From JBFLYE01 sp040756715 [NCBI: bacterium] (GTDB taxonomy: Bacteria; UBA9089; UBA9088): a stretch of DNA of 6,626 nt. The stretch covers positions 1 through 6,626 of the forward strand of contig JBFLYE010000131.1 of the NCBI GenBank assembly GCA_040756715.1, read 5' to 3'. Of this stretch, positions 104-6,415 are shown in pieces; the first letter of the stretch is position 1, and each line of letters starts with the position of its first letter. Position numbers and translations under genes: made by a program. The notes under the pieces were generated by a model, which had not been told where the DNA came from, did no database searches, and was given only the letters and a program-made list of their open reading frames with translations.

Positions 104-1483
104 TTATTTTATTGCCTTAAGGGGTATTGCAACCGCCTTATATTTTTTAAATTTCCAGGATATGGCTGTTTTGTATGGTTTTTCTACTACCTCTCTTTTT
201 ATATCTTTCTTACCCCCTTCCTTCTTGCTAACTACCTCTTTATCCCTCTTTACTTTCTTCCTTTTTTTATAGGTATTCTTTGTATCAAGGATTACCCCTC
301 CGATAAGGAAATATTGCTGTGTCCAGGTTCCCCTGTGTATTTCCCTAACCGTCTCTTTAATAGAAGGTATCTTTGATGGTGTATCAATGGGTTTTATTGG
401 ATAATCTGCTAATGCCAAATTTTGAAGATGGCCCCTATCTTTAAGCCACCTTGCTATAGCCACAAATTTTGCTATTCTAATAAGCTCTTTATAAATAGGC
501 ACCTCTTTGGCAAATTCCCTATAATTTTCTTCAAAGAAAGAGGCAAATTCCTCTGGTGCTTGATATTTACTTTCACTTTCAACCCCCATTACAATCTTAT
601 CAAACATAATGCCCCCTCCTTCTTCTATAAGGACAACCTCTTTTGGCTTAAACCAGATTCTGCTAAAATGCCCTATTTTTATATTCTCATCTTTATTAGA
701 AACAAGCTCTATCAGGGTTTTAAATCCAGAAAGGGAGGATGTAATTGTTTCTTTAGTTATAGGGTCTTTTCCAAAGCTTAATGCCTTTAGCATCCTATCT
801 GCCTCAAACAGCCTTTGCCCAAGGTGGGTATTGTTTATTTCATTTGGTATATAGCGCACCTTTTGGTAAGCATTGCAAGGCTCAATGCTTACACCTGGAT
901 TTTCTTCCCCTTTTATAATCTTCATTACCATAATTAAATCATCCATATCCATAGGGGGAAGGGATGGGTCTTTTTTGCTTGTATCAGAAAGGATAACTGG
1001 CCAGCCTAAATTATTATCCCAGATTGCTCCATCAACATCATTAAGCTTAGCAAATGCCTTATATGCCTCTTGGATGCGCAACCTAGGCAATTCCTGCCTT
1101 GCTTTTTCTACCTCAGGAAAGCCAGGATATTCATTGATAAATCCTTCGTAAGCATCCAGACTATCCTTTTTTTGGGTAATTTCCCAGGCAAGACAAGATG
1201 CCTTTTTCATAGCTGTTTTAGAAAATCTGCCTTTGGGAAATTCCTTAAGATAATTTTTATAGCTATTAAGGTCGTTTGCCTGTAAGGTTTTTATCCAGTA
1301 TTTAACCTCTCTCTTATGAGAGCTTATGGGAAATTTACCAACAAAGGATTTATATGATAAGATGCTATTTATCTGGCAGGCTTTATCAAAAGCTTTGGAT
1401 TCTATCCTTTTAAAAACTATAATTCCCACTATTGTTCCAGCTAGAATTATACAAACAATCAATAGCAATACAAGCTTCTTCAA
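104..1483 (-). CDS. Uncharacterised membrane-anchored protein with TPR-like repeats
   Basis: This 459-residue protein is not one I can name. Residues 1-3 (MKK) and a hydrophobic run at 4-24 form an uncleaved signal anchor; Cys11 has Val before it, so there is no lipobox. Residues about 40-132 hold three related helical repeats with the pattern aromatic-x2-aromatic then F/Y-P (Y44/F47/FP52, Y75/Y78/FP83, Y112/F115/YP120), like the TPR-type repeats of TolA-binding-protein relatives. Residues 150-370 form a separate domain with GWPVIL (160-165), PGVSIEP (196-202), and FEADRMLKALSFGKD (226-240). From memory this resembles an uncharacterised domain seen in Planctomycetes and other environmental bacteria. 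A GGVILD motif (about 395-400) precedes a lysine-rich tail (404-459, 15 of the first 32 residues K/R). The start is TTG, chosen because it alone includes the whole anchor; no Shine-Dalgarno precedes it. Likely monocistronic, with its bulk on the periplasmic side. Coding is well supported; function is unknown. Confidence 0.85.
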   Translation of the reverse strand: MKKLVLLLIVCIILAGTIVGIIVFKRIESKAFDKACQINSILSYKSFVGKFPISSHKREVKYWIKTLQANDLNSYKNYLKEFPKGRFSKTAMKKASCLAWEITQKKDSLDAYEGFINEYPGFPEVEKARQELPRLRIQEAYKAFAKLNDVDGAIWDNNLGWPVILSDTSKKDPSLPPMDMDDLIMVMKIIKGEENPGVSIEPCNAYQKVRYIPNEINNTHLGQRLFEADRMLKALSFGKDPITKETITSSLSGFKTLIELVSNKDENIKIGHFSRIWFKPKEVVLIEEGGGIMFDKIVMGVESESKYQAPEEFASFFEENYREFAKEVPIYKELIRIAKFVAIARWLKDRGHLQNLALADYPIKPIDTPSKIPSIKETVREIHRGTWTQQYFLIGGVILDTKNTYKKRKKVKRDKEVVSKKEGGKKDIKREVVEKPYKTAISWKFKKYKAVAIPLKAIK

Positions 1484-1792: not shown

Positions 1793-3088
1793 CTAAACAC
1801 CAAGAGAAAAGAGAAGGGTTGCTTCGGCAGCCAGCTCGCTGTCTACCCATCCCTTTACTTCAACCATACCTACCTTTTTTCTAATCTTTACCGGTATTGC
1901 CTCAAACCTTATTTGATCCCCGGGGATAACTGGCTTTCTAAATCGGACATTATCCAGACCAGCAAGATATACCAGCTTTCCCCTATTTTTCTCCTCTAAA
2001 AGAAGCAAAACACCCGCTGTTTGAGCCATTGCCTCAATAATGAGAACACCTGGCATAACCGGATTTCCTGGAAAATGTCCCTGAAAGAATTCTTCGTTCA
2101 TTGTTACATTTTTTATCCCAACAACCCTTTTCGCTGGCTCTATCTCAAGGATTCTGTCAATAAGAAGGAATGGATACCTGTGGGGAATTATTCCAAGGAT
2201 TTCTTTTATATCCATCCTTCCCTCCCCTATTACTATACCCTCATTCTTTTTTAGCATCTCCTCTATCCTCCTTGCCAATTTTATATTTAAGGAATGTCCC
2301 GAGCAATTGGCAATAATATGACCTTTTAATGGAATGCCCAGAAGGAAAAGGTCACCAATTAAATCAAGAATCTTATGTCTGACAAATTCATCTTCATACC
2401 TTAATGGCTTGTTAATAATTTCATCATCAGAGAGAACAATTGCATTTTCAAGAGAACCACCCTTAATAAGACCTGCTTGCCGAAGGCTATTGACCTCATC
2501 AAGAAAACCGAATGTCCTTGCTGGAGCTATCTCTTTTATAAAAGATGTTTCATCTAGCTTAAGTTCTAATGACTGTTTCTTTACCCCAGGATGAGAAAAA
2601 GAAATTGTATATGATACCTTAAACCCATTATAAGGAAGGATAGAGATAGACCTTCCATCCTCCTTTATCTCAACAGGACCTGTAAAAGAGAGATATTTCA
2701 TTCTTCCCTCCTGCTTTTTTATGCCCGCAGATTTTATAAGCAGAGCAAAGGGAAGACTGCTTCCATCCATAATGGGTATCTCAGATCCATTAACCTCTAT
2801 AAATAGGTTTGTAATGGAAAAAGAAGATAAAGAACCCAAAAGATGCTCTATTGTCTTAATCTCTGTTCCATCTTTTTTTAAAGAAATCTCCCTGTATGAT
2901 GAGGAAACATAGCAAAGCTTTGCAGGTATCTCTACATCATCCTTTATAAAAACAATGCCTGTATTAGGAGGAGCTGGTTTAAGGGCTATTGTAATATTTT
3001 GTCCTGTATGTAGCCCTATACCAGAGAGGGATACCTCTTTATTTATTGTATTCTGTGTTAAATTATTCATCCTTCCCGAATCCCGCAA
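1793..3088 (-). CDS. lpxC-fabZ: Bifunctional LpxC deacetylase / FabZ dehydratase
   Basis: A cytoplasmic fusion of two lipid enzymes. The N-terminal part (to about residue 282) is the zinc-dependent UDP-3-O-acyl-GlcNAc deacetylase LpxC, the committed step of lipid A synthesis. It has GLHTG at 25-29, the catalytic/zinc pair E81-H82 (IEHLLG), the FVRHKILDLIGD segment with zinc ligands H238 and D242, and SGH near 265. The C-terminal part (292-431) is FabZ, 3-hydroxyacyl-ACP dehydratase, a hot-dog fold: HRYPFLLIDR, then catalytic H338 in GHFPGNPVMPG and E352 in IIEAMAQ. Both active sites look complete. The linker is only about ten residues. Such fusions are known in Bacteroidetes and Chlorobi. The gene begins three bases after dnaE stops, so it is co-transcribed. 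The start is uncertain: TTG at 3088 has GGAG six bases upstream, whereas ATG at 3070 gives an N-terminus closer to typical LpxC; numbering here uses TTG. Confidence 0.95.
   Translation of the reverse strand: MRDSGRMNNLTQNTINKEVSLSGIGLHTGQNITIALKPAPPNTGIVFIKDDVEIPAKLCYVSSSYREISLKKDGTEIKTIEHLLGSLSSFSITNLFIEVNGSEIPIMDGSSLPFALLIKSAGIKKQEGRMKYLSFTGPVEIKEDGRSISILPYNGFKVSYTISFSHPGVKKQSLELKLDETSFIKEIAPARTFGFLDEVNSLRQAGLIKGGSLENAIVLSDDEIINKPLRYEDEFVRHKILDLIGDLFLLGIPLKGHIIANCSGHSLNIKLARRIEEMLKKNEGIVIGEGRMDIKEILGIIPHRYPFLLIDRILEIEPAKRVVGIKNVTMNEEFFQGHFPGNPVMPGVLIIEAMAQTAGVLLLLEEKNRGKLVYLAGLDNVRFRKPVIPGDQIRFEAIPVKIRKKVGMVEVKGWVDSELAAEATLLFSLGV
2213..2227 (-). promoter_or_regulatory. Strong internal ribosome-binding site and ATG at the FabZ boundary
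   Basis: Within the fusion gene, GGGGAGG (2227-2221) lies five bases before an in-frame ATG (2215-2213), which is Met292. Translation from here would give a 140-residue protein that starts MDIKEIL, directly at the natural FabZ N-terminus and of ordinary FabZ length. The codons GGG-GAG-GGA-AGG are also needed to encode linker residues GEGR, so chance is possible. The site is stronger by eye than any other ribosome-binding sequence in the window. Confidence 0.55.
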
Positions 3089-3098
3089 TTCCTACTCC
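3086..3098 (-). promoter_or_regulatory. Ribosome-binding site overlapping the dnaE stop
   Basis: GGAG (3098-3095) is followed by TAGGAA and then TTG (3088-3086). The dnaE stop codon TAG (3094-3092) lies inside the spacer, an arrangement typical of translational coupling. For the alternative ATG at 3070, the nearest candidate is GGGA (3084-3081) ten bases upstream, plus a GGGAAGG run that abuts the ATG and is too close to work normally. The site therefore favours TTG, while family comparison is compatible with either. Confidence 0.55.
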
Positions 3099-6000
3099 AC
3101 CCACACATTCTCTCCCCCCACAACCTCCTTTAAACTTGCAAACATCTCTTCATCAAGCTTAATCCTCTTTGCTGCCAATAAAACCCTCTCTGAACCATTT
3201 TTTCCAAAATGAAGATAGAATAGGCAATTTCCAGAAAAAGGGGAGATAATTTCTTTAATTTTATGGAGAATCTCTTCACAAGATGTGTTTAGCCGAAGGT
3301 GTATTGTCGGCCTCCTTTCATCAAAGGATAAGACCTTATCTGCTATAACCTTTGGTTCTCTCTTTTTATCTACCCTTCCCTCCACAATAACAATTGTGTC
3401 TTTTGCAACCTTATTTTCAGAAATTTTGTAGGCTTCGGGAAACAAAATAACCTCAATCCCTCCGCTTAGGTCTTCTATCTCCATAAATGCCATTGTATCG
3501 CCCTTTTTTGTCTTTGTCTTCTTTATCTTCCTTATCATCCCTGCTATGGAAACAAAAAAACCATCCCCTTTATCAAAAATGGAGATTATCTTTTCGTATC
3601 CTCTAAGCTTATCTTTATACCTTTCCAAAGGATGACCTGAGATATAAACGCCGGTTAGCTCCTTTTCAAGAGCCAGCTTCTGCATTTCATCCCATTCGGG
3701 AACATCTACAGGTTTTACTTCTTCTTCAAAAAGAGAAATTTGGTTTGTCTTTTTCCCATTTGTTTCAAGAACCTTATCTAAAGCAAGGATAAGGCTTGCT
3801 CGCTTACCAAGACCATCAAATGCACCTACTTTTATCAAACTTTCAAGAACCCTCTTATTTACAAGACGGGTATCAACCCTGTTGCAGAAATCAGAAAGGG
3901 AGGAAAATGGCCATTTCTTTCTTACCGATACAATTGATGAAGCAGCCAATTCTCCTACATGCTTTATTGCGGTAAGGGAAAACCTTATATTTCCATCCTC
4001 AATAGCAAAATATGGATATGAGCTATTTATATTGGGTGGAAGAATTTTTATTCCCATCTTCCTGCACTCATTGATATATATGGCTATCTTATCTTGGTTG
4101 TTCAATTCATTGGTAATAAGCGAAGCCATAAACTCTAAAAGATAATTTGCCTTAAGATAGGCTGTCTGATAGGCAATTAAGGCATAAGCTGCAGAATGTG
4201 ATTTGTTAAAACCATATTCAGCAAACCTGCTCAAAAGCTCATATATCTTTGAGGCAAGATGCTCTGAATGATTATGCCTTATACATCCCCTTATAAATTC
4301 ATCCCTCATCTTTCTCATCTTATCCTCTTGTTTTTTAGACATTGCCCTCCTTAGCTCATCTGCGGTAGACATAGAAAATCCTGCCAGGGTCTCTGCAATC
4401 TGCATAACCTGCTCCTGATAGACTATAACGCCATATGTTTGAGCAAGGATTGGCTTTAATAAAGGTGTTGGATATTCTATTTTCTTTCTTTGATGCTTTC
4501 TTTCTATAAAATCAGAAACCATACCAGATTTAAGTGGTCCTGGTCTATGTAAAGCAATGAGGGCGATTAAGTCTTCAAAGGTTGTTGGTTTTATCCTTTT
4601 TAATAAATCCTGCATTCCAGATGACTCAAGCTGGAATAAACCAATGGATTCTCCCCTTGAAAGAAGCTCATATGTCTTTTTATCATCAAGGGGAATTTTC
4701 TTTATGTTTATTTCAATTCCCTGCCTTTCCTTTATTAACTTTATTGTGTCATGGATTACAGTAAGGTTAACCAGGCCAAGAAAATCCATCTTAAGAAGGC
4801 CTATTGCCTCAATATCGTCTTTTGAATATTGGGTTGCAATCCTTCCCGATGTTGGGTCTTTGTAGAGAGGAACAATCTCTGTAAGGGGAAGGGAGCTAAT
4901 TACGATGCCTGCGGCATGGGTTGAGGCATGCCGTGTAAGACCTTCAAGCCTCATTGCTATATCAATAAGCTCCTTCTTTTTTTCATCACTTTTATATTCT
5001 TCTCTAAAGCTTGGAATTTTAACCAATGCCTCATGTAGGGTAACACCTACCTCCTCATTAAGCATCTTGGCAAGCTTATCACAATCACTATAAGAAAAAT
5101 TAAGGACCCTTCCTGTATCACGGAGAACCTGTCTGGCAAGCATGGTTCCAAATGTAATAATTTGGGCTGTTTTATCAGAGCCATATTTCTTTGTTACATA
5201 GGAAAGTATCTCATCCCTCCTTTTGTAGCAAAAATCTATGTCAATATCTGGCAGGGAAACCCTGTTTGGATTTAAAAACCTTTCAAAGAGGAGGTTATAC
5301 CTTAATGGGTCTATATCTGTAATCCCAAGGCAATAGGCAACAATAGAGCCAGCCACAGAGCCCCTTCCTGGGCCAACCGGAATTCCTTCTCTTTCTGCAT
5401 ATTGAATAAGGTCATGAATAATAAGGAAATAGCTGGCATATTTCATCTTTGAGATAACCGAAAGCTCATATTCAAGCCTTTCCCAAGCCTTCTCATCATC
5501 ATTATACCTTTCTTTTAAACCCTTTATACATAAGTGTTTTAAAGCCTCGTCTGGCTCTTCTTCTTTTGTTTCGTAGTGTGGGAGATAGAGAGAGCCAAAT
5601 TCAAGCTCAAGGTTGCAAGCATCGGCTATCAATTGTGTGTTTTCTATTGCAGAGGGAATATCTGAAAATAAGGCTTTCATTTCTTCTTCGCTTTTAAAGT
5701 AAAGCTCTGGGGTTTGAAATTTTAGCCTCTTTTCTTCTTCTATTTTCTTTCCTGTCTGGATGCAAATAAGGACATCATGTGCAGGATAATCAGCCCTTTC
5801 TAAATAATGGATGTCATTTGTTGCAACAAGACCAATGGAGAGCCTTTTTCCTATTTCAATTAAGCCCTTTCTTACAATTTCTTCCTCATCAAGGTTGTGG
5901 TTTAGAAGCTCAAGGTAAAAATTTTTGCTGCCAAATATTTTAAGGTATTCTTCTGCCTTTTTTTCTGCCTCTTTAATTCTTCCATCCAAGATAAGCCTTG

Positions 6001-6415
6001 GGATTTGACCCTTTGTGCAACCAGATAAAGCAATTATTCCCCTGCTATATTCCTTAAGAAGGCTTTCGTCTATCCTTGGCTTATAGTAAAACCCATCAAG
6101 ATAGCTTATACTTGTAAGCTTTATAAGGTTTTTATAGCCTGTTATATCTTTTGCAAGGAGGGTTATATGGAAAAGTATTTCCTTTTGCCTTTCTTTTATG
6201 TTATTGCAAACATAAAATTCACATCCAATTATGGGCTTTATGCCATGGGCAAGGGCTGTCTTATAAAACTTTATCGCACCAAACATATTTCCATGGTCTG
6301 TGATAGCCAAAGCAGACATTGAAAGGAAAGATGCCTTTTGGACAAGGCTTTCGACCCTTATTGCTCCATCCAATAAGCTATACTCAGAATGGCAATGAAG
6401 ATGGGTGAATTTCAT
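3092..6415 (-). CDS. dnaE: DNA polymerase III alpha subunit
   Basis: The catalytic replicative polymerase (C-family), 1107 residues, somewhat shorter than the 1160 of E. coli. Order of domains: PHP (about 1-210), polymerase palm/thumb/fingers (about 270-800), tandem HhH (about 813-868), OB fold (about 953-1030) and a short C-terminal domain (about 1031-1107). The catalytic aspartates are D390 and D392 (PDIDIDF) and D544 (KMDFLGL), each 11 residues before the E. coli equivalents. GPGRGSVAGS lies before them. The clamp-binding motif QISLF is at 892-896. All nine PHP metal ligands of Thermus-type enzymes are present: H7, H9, D16, H41, E66, H83, C133, D201 and H203, unlike E. coli where the site is degenerate. 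The start is fixed because HLHCH begins at residue 5. No Shine-Dalgarno precedes the ATG; the -10 box sits seven bases away, so the mRNA is probably leaderless. First gene of the operon with lpxC-fabZ. Confidence 0.98.
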   Translation of the reverse strand: MKFTHLHCHSEYSLLDGAIRVESLVQKASFLSMSALAITDHGNMFGAIKFYKTALAHGIKPIIGCEFYVCNNIKERQKEILFHITLLAKDITGYKNLIKLTSISYLDGFYYKPRIDESLLKEYSRGIIALSGCTKGQIPRLILDGRIKEAEKKAEEYLKIFGSKNFYLELLNHNLDEEEIVRKGLIEIGKRLSIGLVATNDIHYLERADYPAHDVLICIQTGKKIEEEKRLKFQTPELYFKSEEEMKALFSDIPSAIENTQLIADACNLELEFGSLYLPHYETKEEEPDEALKHLCIKGLKERYNDDEKAWERLEYELSVISKMKYASYFLIIHDLIQYAEREGIPVGPGRGSVAGSIVAYCLGITDIDPLRYNLLFERFLNPNRVSLPDIDIDFCYKRRDEILSYVTKKYGSDKTAQIITFGTMLARQVLRDTGRVLNFSYSDCDKLAKMLNEEVGVTLHEALVKIPSFREEYKSDEKKKELIDIAMRLEGLTRHASTHAAGIVISSLPLTEIVPLYKDPTSGRIATQYSKDDIEAIGLLKMDFLGLVNLTVIHDTIKLIKERQGIEINIKKIPLDDKKTYELLSRGESIGLFQLESSGMQDLLKRIKPTTFEDLIALIALHRPGPLKSGMVSDFIERKHQRKKIEYPTPLLKPILAQTYGVIVYQEQVMQIAETLAGFSMSTADELRRAMSKKQEDKMRKMRDEFIRGCIRHNHSEHLASKIYELLSRFAEYGFNKSHSAAYALIAYQTAYLKANYLLEFMASLITNELNNQDKIAIYINECRKMGIKILPPNINSSYPYFAIEDGNIRFSLTAIKHVGELAASSIVSVRKKWPFSSLSDFCNRVDTRLVNKRVLESLIKVGAFDGLGKRASLILALDKVLETNGKKTNQISLFEEEVKPVDVPEWDEMQKLALEKELTGVYISGHPLERYKDKLRGYEKIISIFDKGDGFFVSIAGMIRKIKKTKTKKGDTMAFMEIEDLSGGIEVILFPEAYKISENKVAKDTIVIVEGRVDKKREPKVIADKVLSFDERRPTIHLRLNTSCEEILHKIKEIISPFSGNCLFYLHFGKNGSERVLLAAKRIKLDEEMFASLKEVVGGENVWVE

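What the first reader, a model, noticed from the sequence alone, without database searches (positions are those of the whole stretch)
2213..2227. Internal start could yield free FabZ beside the LpxC-FabZ fusion
GGGGAGG five bases before an in-frame ATG sits exactly at the domain junction, and the product would be a normal-size 140-residue FabZ. Either the gene makes two proteins, balancing fatty acid and lipid A supply, or this is the fossil start of a formerly separate fabZ fused by loss of an lpxC stop. The ten-residue linker supports a recent or minimal fusion.
Basis: partly seen in the sequence, partly recalled or inferred. Interest (0 to 1): 0.6.

Follow-up and report, generated by a model that had tools for sequence, protein, structure and literature searches.

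The report
Internal FabZ start in LpxC-FabZ fusion
A gene that joins two lipid-making enzymes into one protein carries strong ribosome landing sites just before its second half, so it may also make the second enzyme on its own; the joined gene itself is already known, and the short product is not yet proven.

Summary
On the minus strand, GGGGAGG (2221-2227) and ATG (2213-2215, spacer 5) lie in frame at the first residue of the FabZ domain of an LpxC-FabZ fusion; the product would be a complete 140-residue FabZ (15.7 kDa). GGAGG at spacer 4-9 precedes only 4 of 475 sampled in-frame internal ATGs of this genome. This exact site is kept in 3 of the 5 held species of the class and eroded in two. 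On rechecking I found a second site of like strength in the window's family: AAGGAGG (2267-2273), spacer 9, ATG (2255-2257), 14 codons upstream, present in 3 of 3 family members. So in 5 of 5 species the strongest in-frame ATG of the gene lies 10-27 codons before the PHRYPF motif, at -11.2 kcal/mol or lower; about 0.3% of random stretches have this, and 0 of 46 other fused loci reach -8. I therefore favour an internal start that makes free FabZ, its position differing between the two families, with the focal site probably a remnant of the old fabZ leader. It is unproven: synonymous choice shows no clear selection. "Recent" fusion is wrong; the fusion has been known since 2004.

The parts
1793..3070 (-). 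lpxC-fabZ fusion gene, ATG at 3070-3068 (425 aa, 47.0 kDa); a TTG 18 nt upstream at 3088 is an alternative start (431 aa)
   Evidence: NCBIfam NF009667 470.7 bits, cut-off 465; only LpxC/FabZ match in the genome; mass
2264..3055 (-). LpxC domain (UDP-3-O-acyl-GlcNAc deacetylase)
   Evidence: Pfam PF03331 330.6 bits, residues 12-275 of 431
2267..2273 (-). upstream SD-like AAGGAGG inside the LpxC end (codons of Ala-Arg-Arg)
   Evidence: -11.2 kcal/mol, 5 of 472 internal ATGs as low; present in L001, L002, L003
2255..2257 (-). upstream in-frame ATG (residue 278 of 431), spacer 9; would give a 154-aa FabZ with 14 extra residues
   Evidence: opening cheaper at only 12% of positions
2216..2263 (-). 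junction/linker, residues 276-291 of 431; its last codons GGG GAG GGA AGG contain the focal SD-like sequence
2221..2227 (-). focal SD-like GGGGAGG
   Evidence: -11.5 kcal/mol; 5 of 475 and 4 of 472 internal ATGs as low
2213..2215 (-). focal in-frame ATG (residue 292 of 431), spacer GAAGG
1793..2215 (-). FabZ domain = 140-aa ORF from the focal ATG
   Evidence: TIGR01750, residues 1-137 of 140 = profile 1-140 of 141

Best explanation
The gene makes the bifunctional LpxC-FabZ protein and, in this class, probably also free FabZ from an internal start just before the FabZ domain. In the window's family the better kept start is the ATG at 2257-2255 behind AAGGAGG; in the second family it is the ATG at the FabZ start itself. 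The focal site of the window is probably the old fabZ leader, read as linker since the genes fused, and may add to initiation. Shown: sites, energies, distribution, erosion of the focal site. Inferred: that ribosomes start there, that the old leader became the linker, and that extra FabZ relieves the 1:1 ratio of the two enzymes.
For: In 5 of 5 held class species the strongest in-frame ATG of the ORF lies 10-27 codons before the PHRYPF motif, at -11.2 to -12.4 kcal/mol; an ATG of -11.2 or lower occurs in 0.29% (G000) and 0.35% (G004) of 19-codon stretches of sampled genes, and 0 of 46 fused loci outside the class have an ATG of -8 or lower there. The upstream site is present in 3 of 3 species of the window's family, with AGG AGG and the Met kept, and is easy to open in L001 and L002 (cheaper at 12% and 1% of positions). 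The f2 sites are AAGGAGG-7-ATG, matched by none of 426 or 472 internal ATGs. In L001 the internal SDs are stronger than that of the gene's own ATG (-5.0) or TTG (-7.4). The fusion is the only FabA/FabZ match in 5 of 5 class genomes. Leader origin of the focal site: 10 of 12 separate fabZ starts of the phylum have an SD of -8.9 or lower, and the class junctions resemble ten of those leaders.
Against: No product has been seen. The stretch of 9-27 codons was chosen after I saw the upstream site. Synonymous resampling shows no clear bias to the motif: upstream site P 0.16, 0.16, 0.067; focal place P 0.033 (L001), 0.77, 0.75, 0.46, 0.44. The focal site is eroded in L002 and L003, and in L001 it is not open (76% of positions cheaper). 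Codon conservation around it is ordinary. 12 of 16 fused genomes checked outside the class have the fusion as their only FabA/FabZ match, so free FabZ is not generally needed. Only five species of the class are held, and L001/L002 and L005/L006 are close pairs.
Confidence: 0.45

Rival explanations
1. Fusion scar only: the focal site is the old fabZ ribosome-binding site, now read as linker, decaying without a role; the upstream site of the window's family is an accident of Arg-Arg codons. Only the fusion protein matters.
For: Nine of 19 phylum genomes have separate lpxC and fabZ, in four of them within 400 nt on one contig. Class junctions resemble separate fabZ leaders: similarity equalled or exceeded by 1 and 1 (L006), 1 and 2 (L005), 9 and 5 (L003), 16 and 8 (L001), 33 and 23 (L002) of 472 and 426 internal ATGs. 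The class is one clade in the LpxC tree (100/98), and all fused rows as one clade is rejected (p-AU 0.0007). Erosion in L002 and L003 by two different routes. No clear synonymous bias. 12 of 16 other fused genomes checked have no second FabA/FabZ match.
Against: 5 of 5 species keep some strong SD-ATG just before FabZ, and the f2 sites are near ideal since a fusion older than both families. The upstream site lies inside LpxC and cannot be the old leader of a separate fabZ in the same frame.
Confidence: 0.33
2. Chance: Gly/Glu/Lys/Arg-rich codons around the join, in genomes that favour GGA, GAG and AGG, spell GGAGG before a methionine.
For: Given the residues, energies as low as observed arise in 44-46% of synonymous samples for f2 and 7-16% for the upstream site. 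Internal AGGAG before AUG is not depleted in bacterial genes (PMC6107199, section 12). Eleven of 51 fused loci, with titles of Bacteroidota genera, have an in-frame ATG at the FabZ start without an SD.
Against: About 0.3% of stretches have such an ATG, yet both families have one at the FabZ border, from different residues.
Confidence: 0.17

Closest known systems
Bifunctional LpxC/FabZ (NCBIfam NF009667; fusion described in Chlorobium by PMC516016 in 2004 and in Bacteroidetes, Chlorobi and Verrucomicrobia by PMC3087551 in 2010)
   Same: Domain order; score above the curated cut-off. Fusion by loss of the first stop codon was already proposed for HotDog-domain fusions (PMC516016, section 17).
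   Different: In the LpxC tree this class does not form one clade with the other sampled fusions, and it has strong SD-ATG sites before FabZ that the other 46 fused loci lack.
Genes with internal in-frame translation starts (phage endolysins, PMC9430671; Cas11b inside cas8b, PMC11899642)
   Same: A second start inside one frame, upstream of a C-terminal product (passages).
   Different: Those have experimental support for the short product; here it is predicted only.
Adjacent lpxC and fabZ of Pelosinus (L008, L009, L019)
   Same: The fabZ SD AAGGAG lies in the last lpxC codons, and the lpxC TGA is in frame with two codons between it and the fabZ ATG: one stop codon away from a fusion.
   Different: Still two genes, in another phylum.

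Membership tests
Bifunctional LpxC/FabZ (NF009667) | Score over the curated cut-off with both domains in one frame | tested here: met
   470.7 against 465 bits; TIGR00325 and TIGR01750 also over cut-off
Bifunctional LpxC/FabZ (NF009667) | Residues recalled as catalytic in both enzymes are present | tested here: met
   E75, H76, H232, D236, H259, H332, E346 invariant in 20 of 20 aligned fusions; their roles are from memory
Internal in-frame translation start | SD at workable spacing and start codon in frame | tested here: met
   focal site and upstream site
Internal in-frame translation start | The exact focal site conserved in close relatives | tested here: not met
   kept in 3 of 5 class species (L001, L005, L006); eroded in L002, L003
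Internal in-frame translation start | Some strong SD-ATG just before the C-terminal domain in all held relatives of the class | tested here: met
   5 of 5 class species, -11.2 kcal/mol or lower; the stretch was set after seeing the upstream site
Internal in-frame translation start | Synonymous bias towards the SD | tested here: inconclusive
   focal P 0.033, 0.77, 0.75, 0.46, 0.44; upstream P 0.16, 0.16, 0.067
Internal in-frame translation start | Short product detected | not testable with these tools
   no proteome or ribosome-profiling data at hand
Fusion scar (old fabZ leader) | Unfused relatives with adjacent genes and a similar leader | tested here: met
   G011, G013, G014, G017; leader similarity

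The most novel reading that the evidence does not exclude
In this class the fusion is a gene within a gene under selection for internal initiation but not for its place: when the old fabZ start decayed in one family, a new in-frame start inside the end of lpxC took over. One mRNA then sets the lipid A to fatty acid enzyme ratio by the strengths of its starts, with free FabZ as a major product.
Probability: 0.3. Interest if true: 0.55.

Novelty: new member of a known kind. Interest (0 to 1): 0.4.

Why it matters
If the short product exists, fusing two enzymes at a metabolic branch point need not lock their ratio, and start sites can move while the output is kept; other fused genes should be rescanned for hidden starts at their joins. 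If not, it is a clear case of a ribosome-binding site turned into protein linker.

Tried and rejected
Recent fusion: rejected, as both families of the class are fused. One shared origin of the sampled fused LpxC rows: rejected (19 of 41 rows, p-AU 0.0007). One origin with G016 (L087): not rejected (p-AU 0.06), so an older fusion with later splits remains possible. The FabZ tree is weakly resolved (11 of 30 inner branches starred). Internal promoter for a fabZ-only mRNA: 3 promoter-like hits against 3.9 expected, no support. Raised codon conservation around the focal start: 61 of 419 and 42 of 416 windows as high, not remarkable. A solved fusion structure: none of the 51 PDB sequences matched at 1e-5 covers both domains. 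One search found no paper. The organism could not be named.

Change made on rechecking: I first favoured a fusion scar without function.

Rows chosen or dropped: 80 loci kept of 317 relatives. Junction survey: L001-L087 without L004 (the same gene as L001), 86 loci, 51 fused by the script's rule. In one search's wider range (5-23 codons) three Hymenobacter loci (L039, L040, L041) have a GTG at -8.3 to -9.3; these are not ATGs and are not's count. LpxC tree 41 of 100 sequences and FabZ tree 33 of 100, thinned by hand. 21 genomes hand-picked, several incomplete or of unknown completeness. Leader similarity used 10 of 12 separate fabZ matches; the other two were looked at (L109 -10.9, L108 -5.8). 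Background ORFs (200 codons or more) come from a crude script on 20 contigs each of G000 and G004. One search's set of real starts takes the best of several candidates per ORF and overstates SD use. One search printed a meaningless product length; 154 aa is counted from residue 278 of 431.

Full report
What is there. The minus strand carries dnaE (6415-3092) and right behind it an lpxC-fabZ fusion (3070-1793, or from a TTG at 3088). It scores over the cut-off of the bifunctional family NF009667 and of the separate LpxC and FabZ models. It is the only LpxC or FabA/FabZ match in its genome. Residues that I recall as catalytic in both enzymes are invariant in 20 of 20 aligned fusions.

The focal site. 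GGGGAGG (2221-2227), spacer GAAGG, ATG (2213-2215) is in frame, and the ATG is the first residue of the FabZ profile match. In the AlphaFold model (mean pLDDT 87, about 64-72 around the join) it lies two residues before the first FabZ helix, with eleven residues between it and the end of the last LpxC helix. In 20 sampled contigs, GGAGG at spacer 4-9 precedes 4 of 475 in-frame internal ATGs; -11.5 kcal/mol is reached by 5 of 475 or 4 of 472.

Relatives. Of 19 phylum genomes, six are fused: the five of the class (L001, L002, L003, L005, L006) and G016 (L087). Nine have both genes apart, in G011, G013, G014 and G017 within 400 nt on one contig. G005 shows only fabZ, G007 only lpxC, and G015 and G018 neither. 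Junctions: L001 GGGGAGG-5-ATG. L002 (same genus) GGGGAAGGAGGG-ATG: a synonymous GAG->GAA removes GGAGG at the useful spacing, and a new GGAGG sits 1 nt from the ATG. L003 (same family) has GGAGG five bases before the codon that matches L001's ATG, but that codon is ATA; the GTG before it is 2 nt away. L005 and L006 (second family) have AAGGAGG-7-ATG, one codon upstream of L001's ATG. Energies at spacing 4 or more are -11.5, -6.6, -4.4, -12.2 and -12.2; the last two are matched by none of 426 or 472 internal ATGs.

The upstream site. A survey of all in-frame starts shows AAGGAGG-9-ATG in the codons of Ala-Arg-Arg...Met at the end of LpxC in L001 (ATG 2257-2255), L002 and L003: -11.2, -11.2 and -12.4 kcal/mol, with 5, 5 and 0 of 472 internal ATGs as low. 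In L002 and L003 it is the strongest in-frame start of the gene; in L001 it is second to the focal one. The f2 species lack it. So in 5 of 5 class species the strongest in-frame ATG lies 10-27 codons before PHRYPF. An ATG of -11.2 or lower occurs in 79 of 27,112 (G000) and 78 of 22,346 (G004) 19-codon stretches of sampled genes. None of the other 46 fused loci has an ATG of -8 or lower 9-27 codons before the motif; over all 51 fused loci the strongest ATG falls in that zone in 6 (the five and L027), 4.6 expected by share, so place alone is no signal and strength is what sets the class apart. I set the zone after seeing the site, and many of the 46 are Bacteroidota, which from memory rely little on SD; both weaken the contrast.

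Origin. 10 of 12 separate fabZ starts of the phylum have an SD of -8.9 or lower. The class junctions resemble ten of those leaders: similarity equalled or exceeded by 1 and 1 (L006), 1 and 2 (L005), 9 and 5 (L003), 16 and 8 (L001), 33 and 23 (L002) of 472 and 426 internal ATGs. In the LpxC tree the class is one clade (100/98) inside the phylum's clade; all fused rows as one clade is rejected (p-AU 0.0007), the class with L087 is not (p-AU 0.06). The simplest account is fusion of neighbouring genes at the base of the class, the fabZ leader becoming linker. Pelosinus shows a layout one stop codon short of this (L008, L009, L019). Stop-codon loss was proposed for HotDog fusions in 2004 (PMC516016, section 17). 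The upstream site lies inside lpxC in the fabZ frame, so it cannot have started a separate fabZ; it arose after the fusion or by accident.

Does it work? For: the class-wide presence above; easy opening of the upstream site in L001 and L002 (cheaper at 12% and 1% of positions; L003 41%) and of the f2 site in L006 (6%; L005 38%); internal SDs stronger than those of the gene's own ATG (-5.0) and TTG (-7.4) in L001; the fusion as the only FabA/FabZ match in 5 of 5 class genomes. Against: no clear synonymous bias (focal P 0.033, 0.77, 0.75, 0.46, 0.44; upstream P 0.16, 0.16, 0.067); focal site eroded in two species and closed in L001 (76% of positions cheaper); ordinary codon conservation; 12 of 16 fused genomes checked outside the class with no second match. 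Internal AGGAG before AUG is not depleted in bacteria (PMC6107199, section 12). On balance I favour internal initiation at 0.45, a scar without role at 0.33 and chance at 0.17.

Known or new. The fusion is known (PMC516016, passages and section 17; PMC3087551, passages). Internal in-frame starts are a known kind (PMC9430671, passages; PMC11899642, passages). In the listings of seven searches of the held library (lists cut at 25 of 34, 15 of 23 and 12 of 54 papers) I saw no paper on an internal start in lpxC-fabZ.

Verdict. Observation confirmed; two-product reading now the leading one but unproven; fossil reading plausible for the focal site; 'recent' fusion wrong. Interest 0.4.

Noticed in passing
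1-62, 1533-1634, 1654-1770: An AT-rich ~50-nt repeat unit (TTAATTCAAAATTCAACATTCAAAATTC...) in direct and inverted copies around the gene at 104-1483; 65 matches listed in the genome, several at contig ends, so it probably breaks the assembly.
   Followed up: partly
104-1483 (-): 459-aa protein with a weak YbgF-like match (TIGR02795, 26.6 bits against cut-off 90.1) and no Pfam match at 0.001.
   Followed up: no
3092-6415 (-): dnaE directly upstream of lpxC-fabZ; L003 shows a similar protein end (ENIWVA, here ENVWVE) and stop just before its lpxC start, so the order seems kept in the family.
   Followed up: no
L001 and L002, FabZ domain: In the FabZ tree the window's end branch is 0.11 against 0.008 for its same-genus relative, while their LpxC branches are alike, 0.13 and 0.11: FabZ may evolve faster in the window's species.
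   Followed up: no
L031-L041, junction: Eleven fusions with titles of Bacteroidota genera keep an in-frame ATG at the FabZ start with weak SD energy, -0.1 to -2.2.
   Followed up: no
2699-2714 (-), ATG at residue 130 of 431: A third strong in-frame ATG (GCAGGAGGGAAGAATG, -10.8 kcal/mol, 7 of 472 as low) inside the LpxC domain of the window's gene; it matches no domain border, a reminder that such sites also arise without an obvious role.
   Followed up: no
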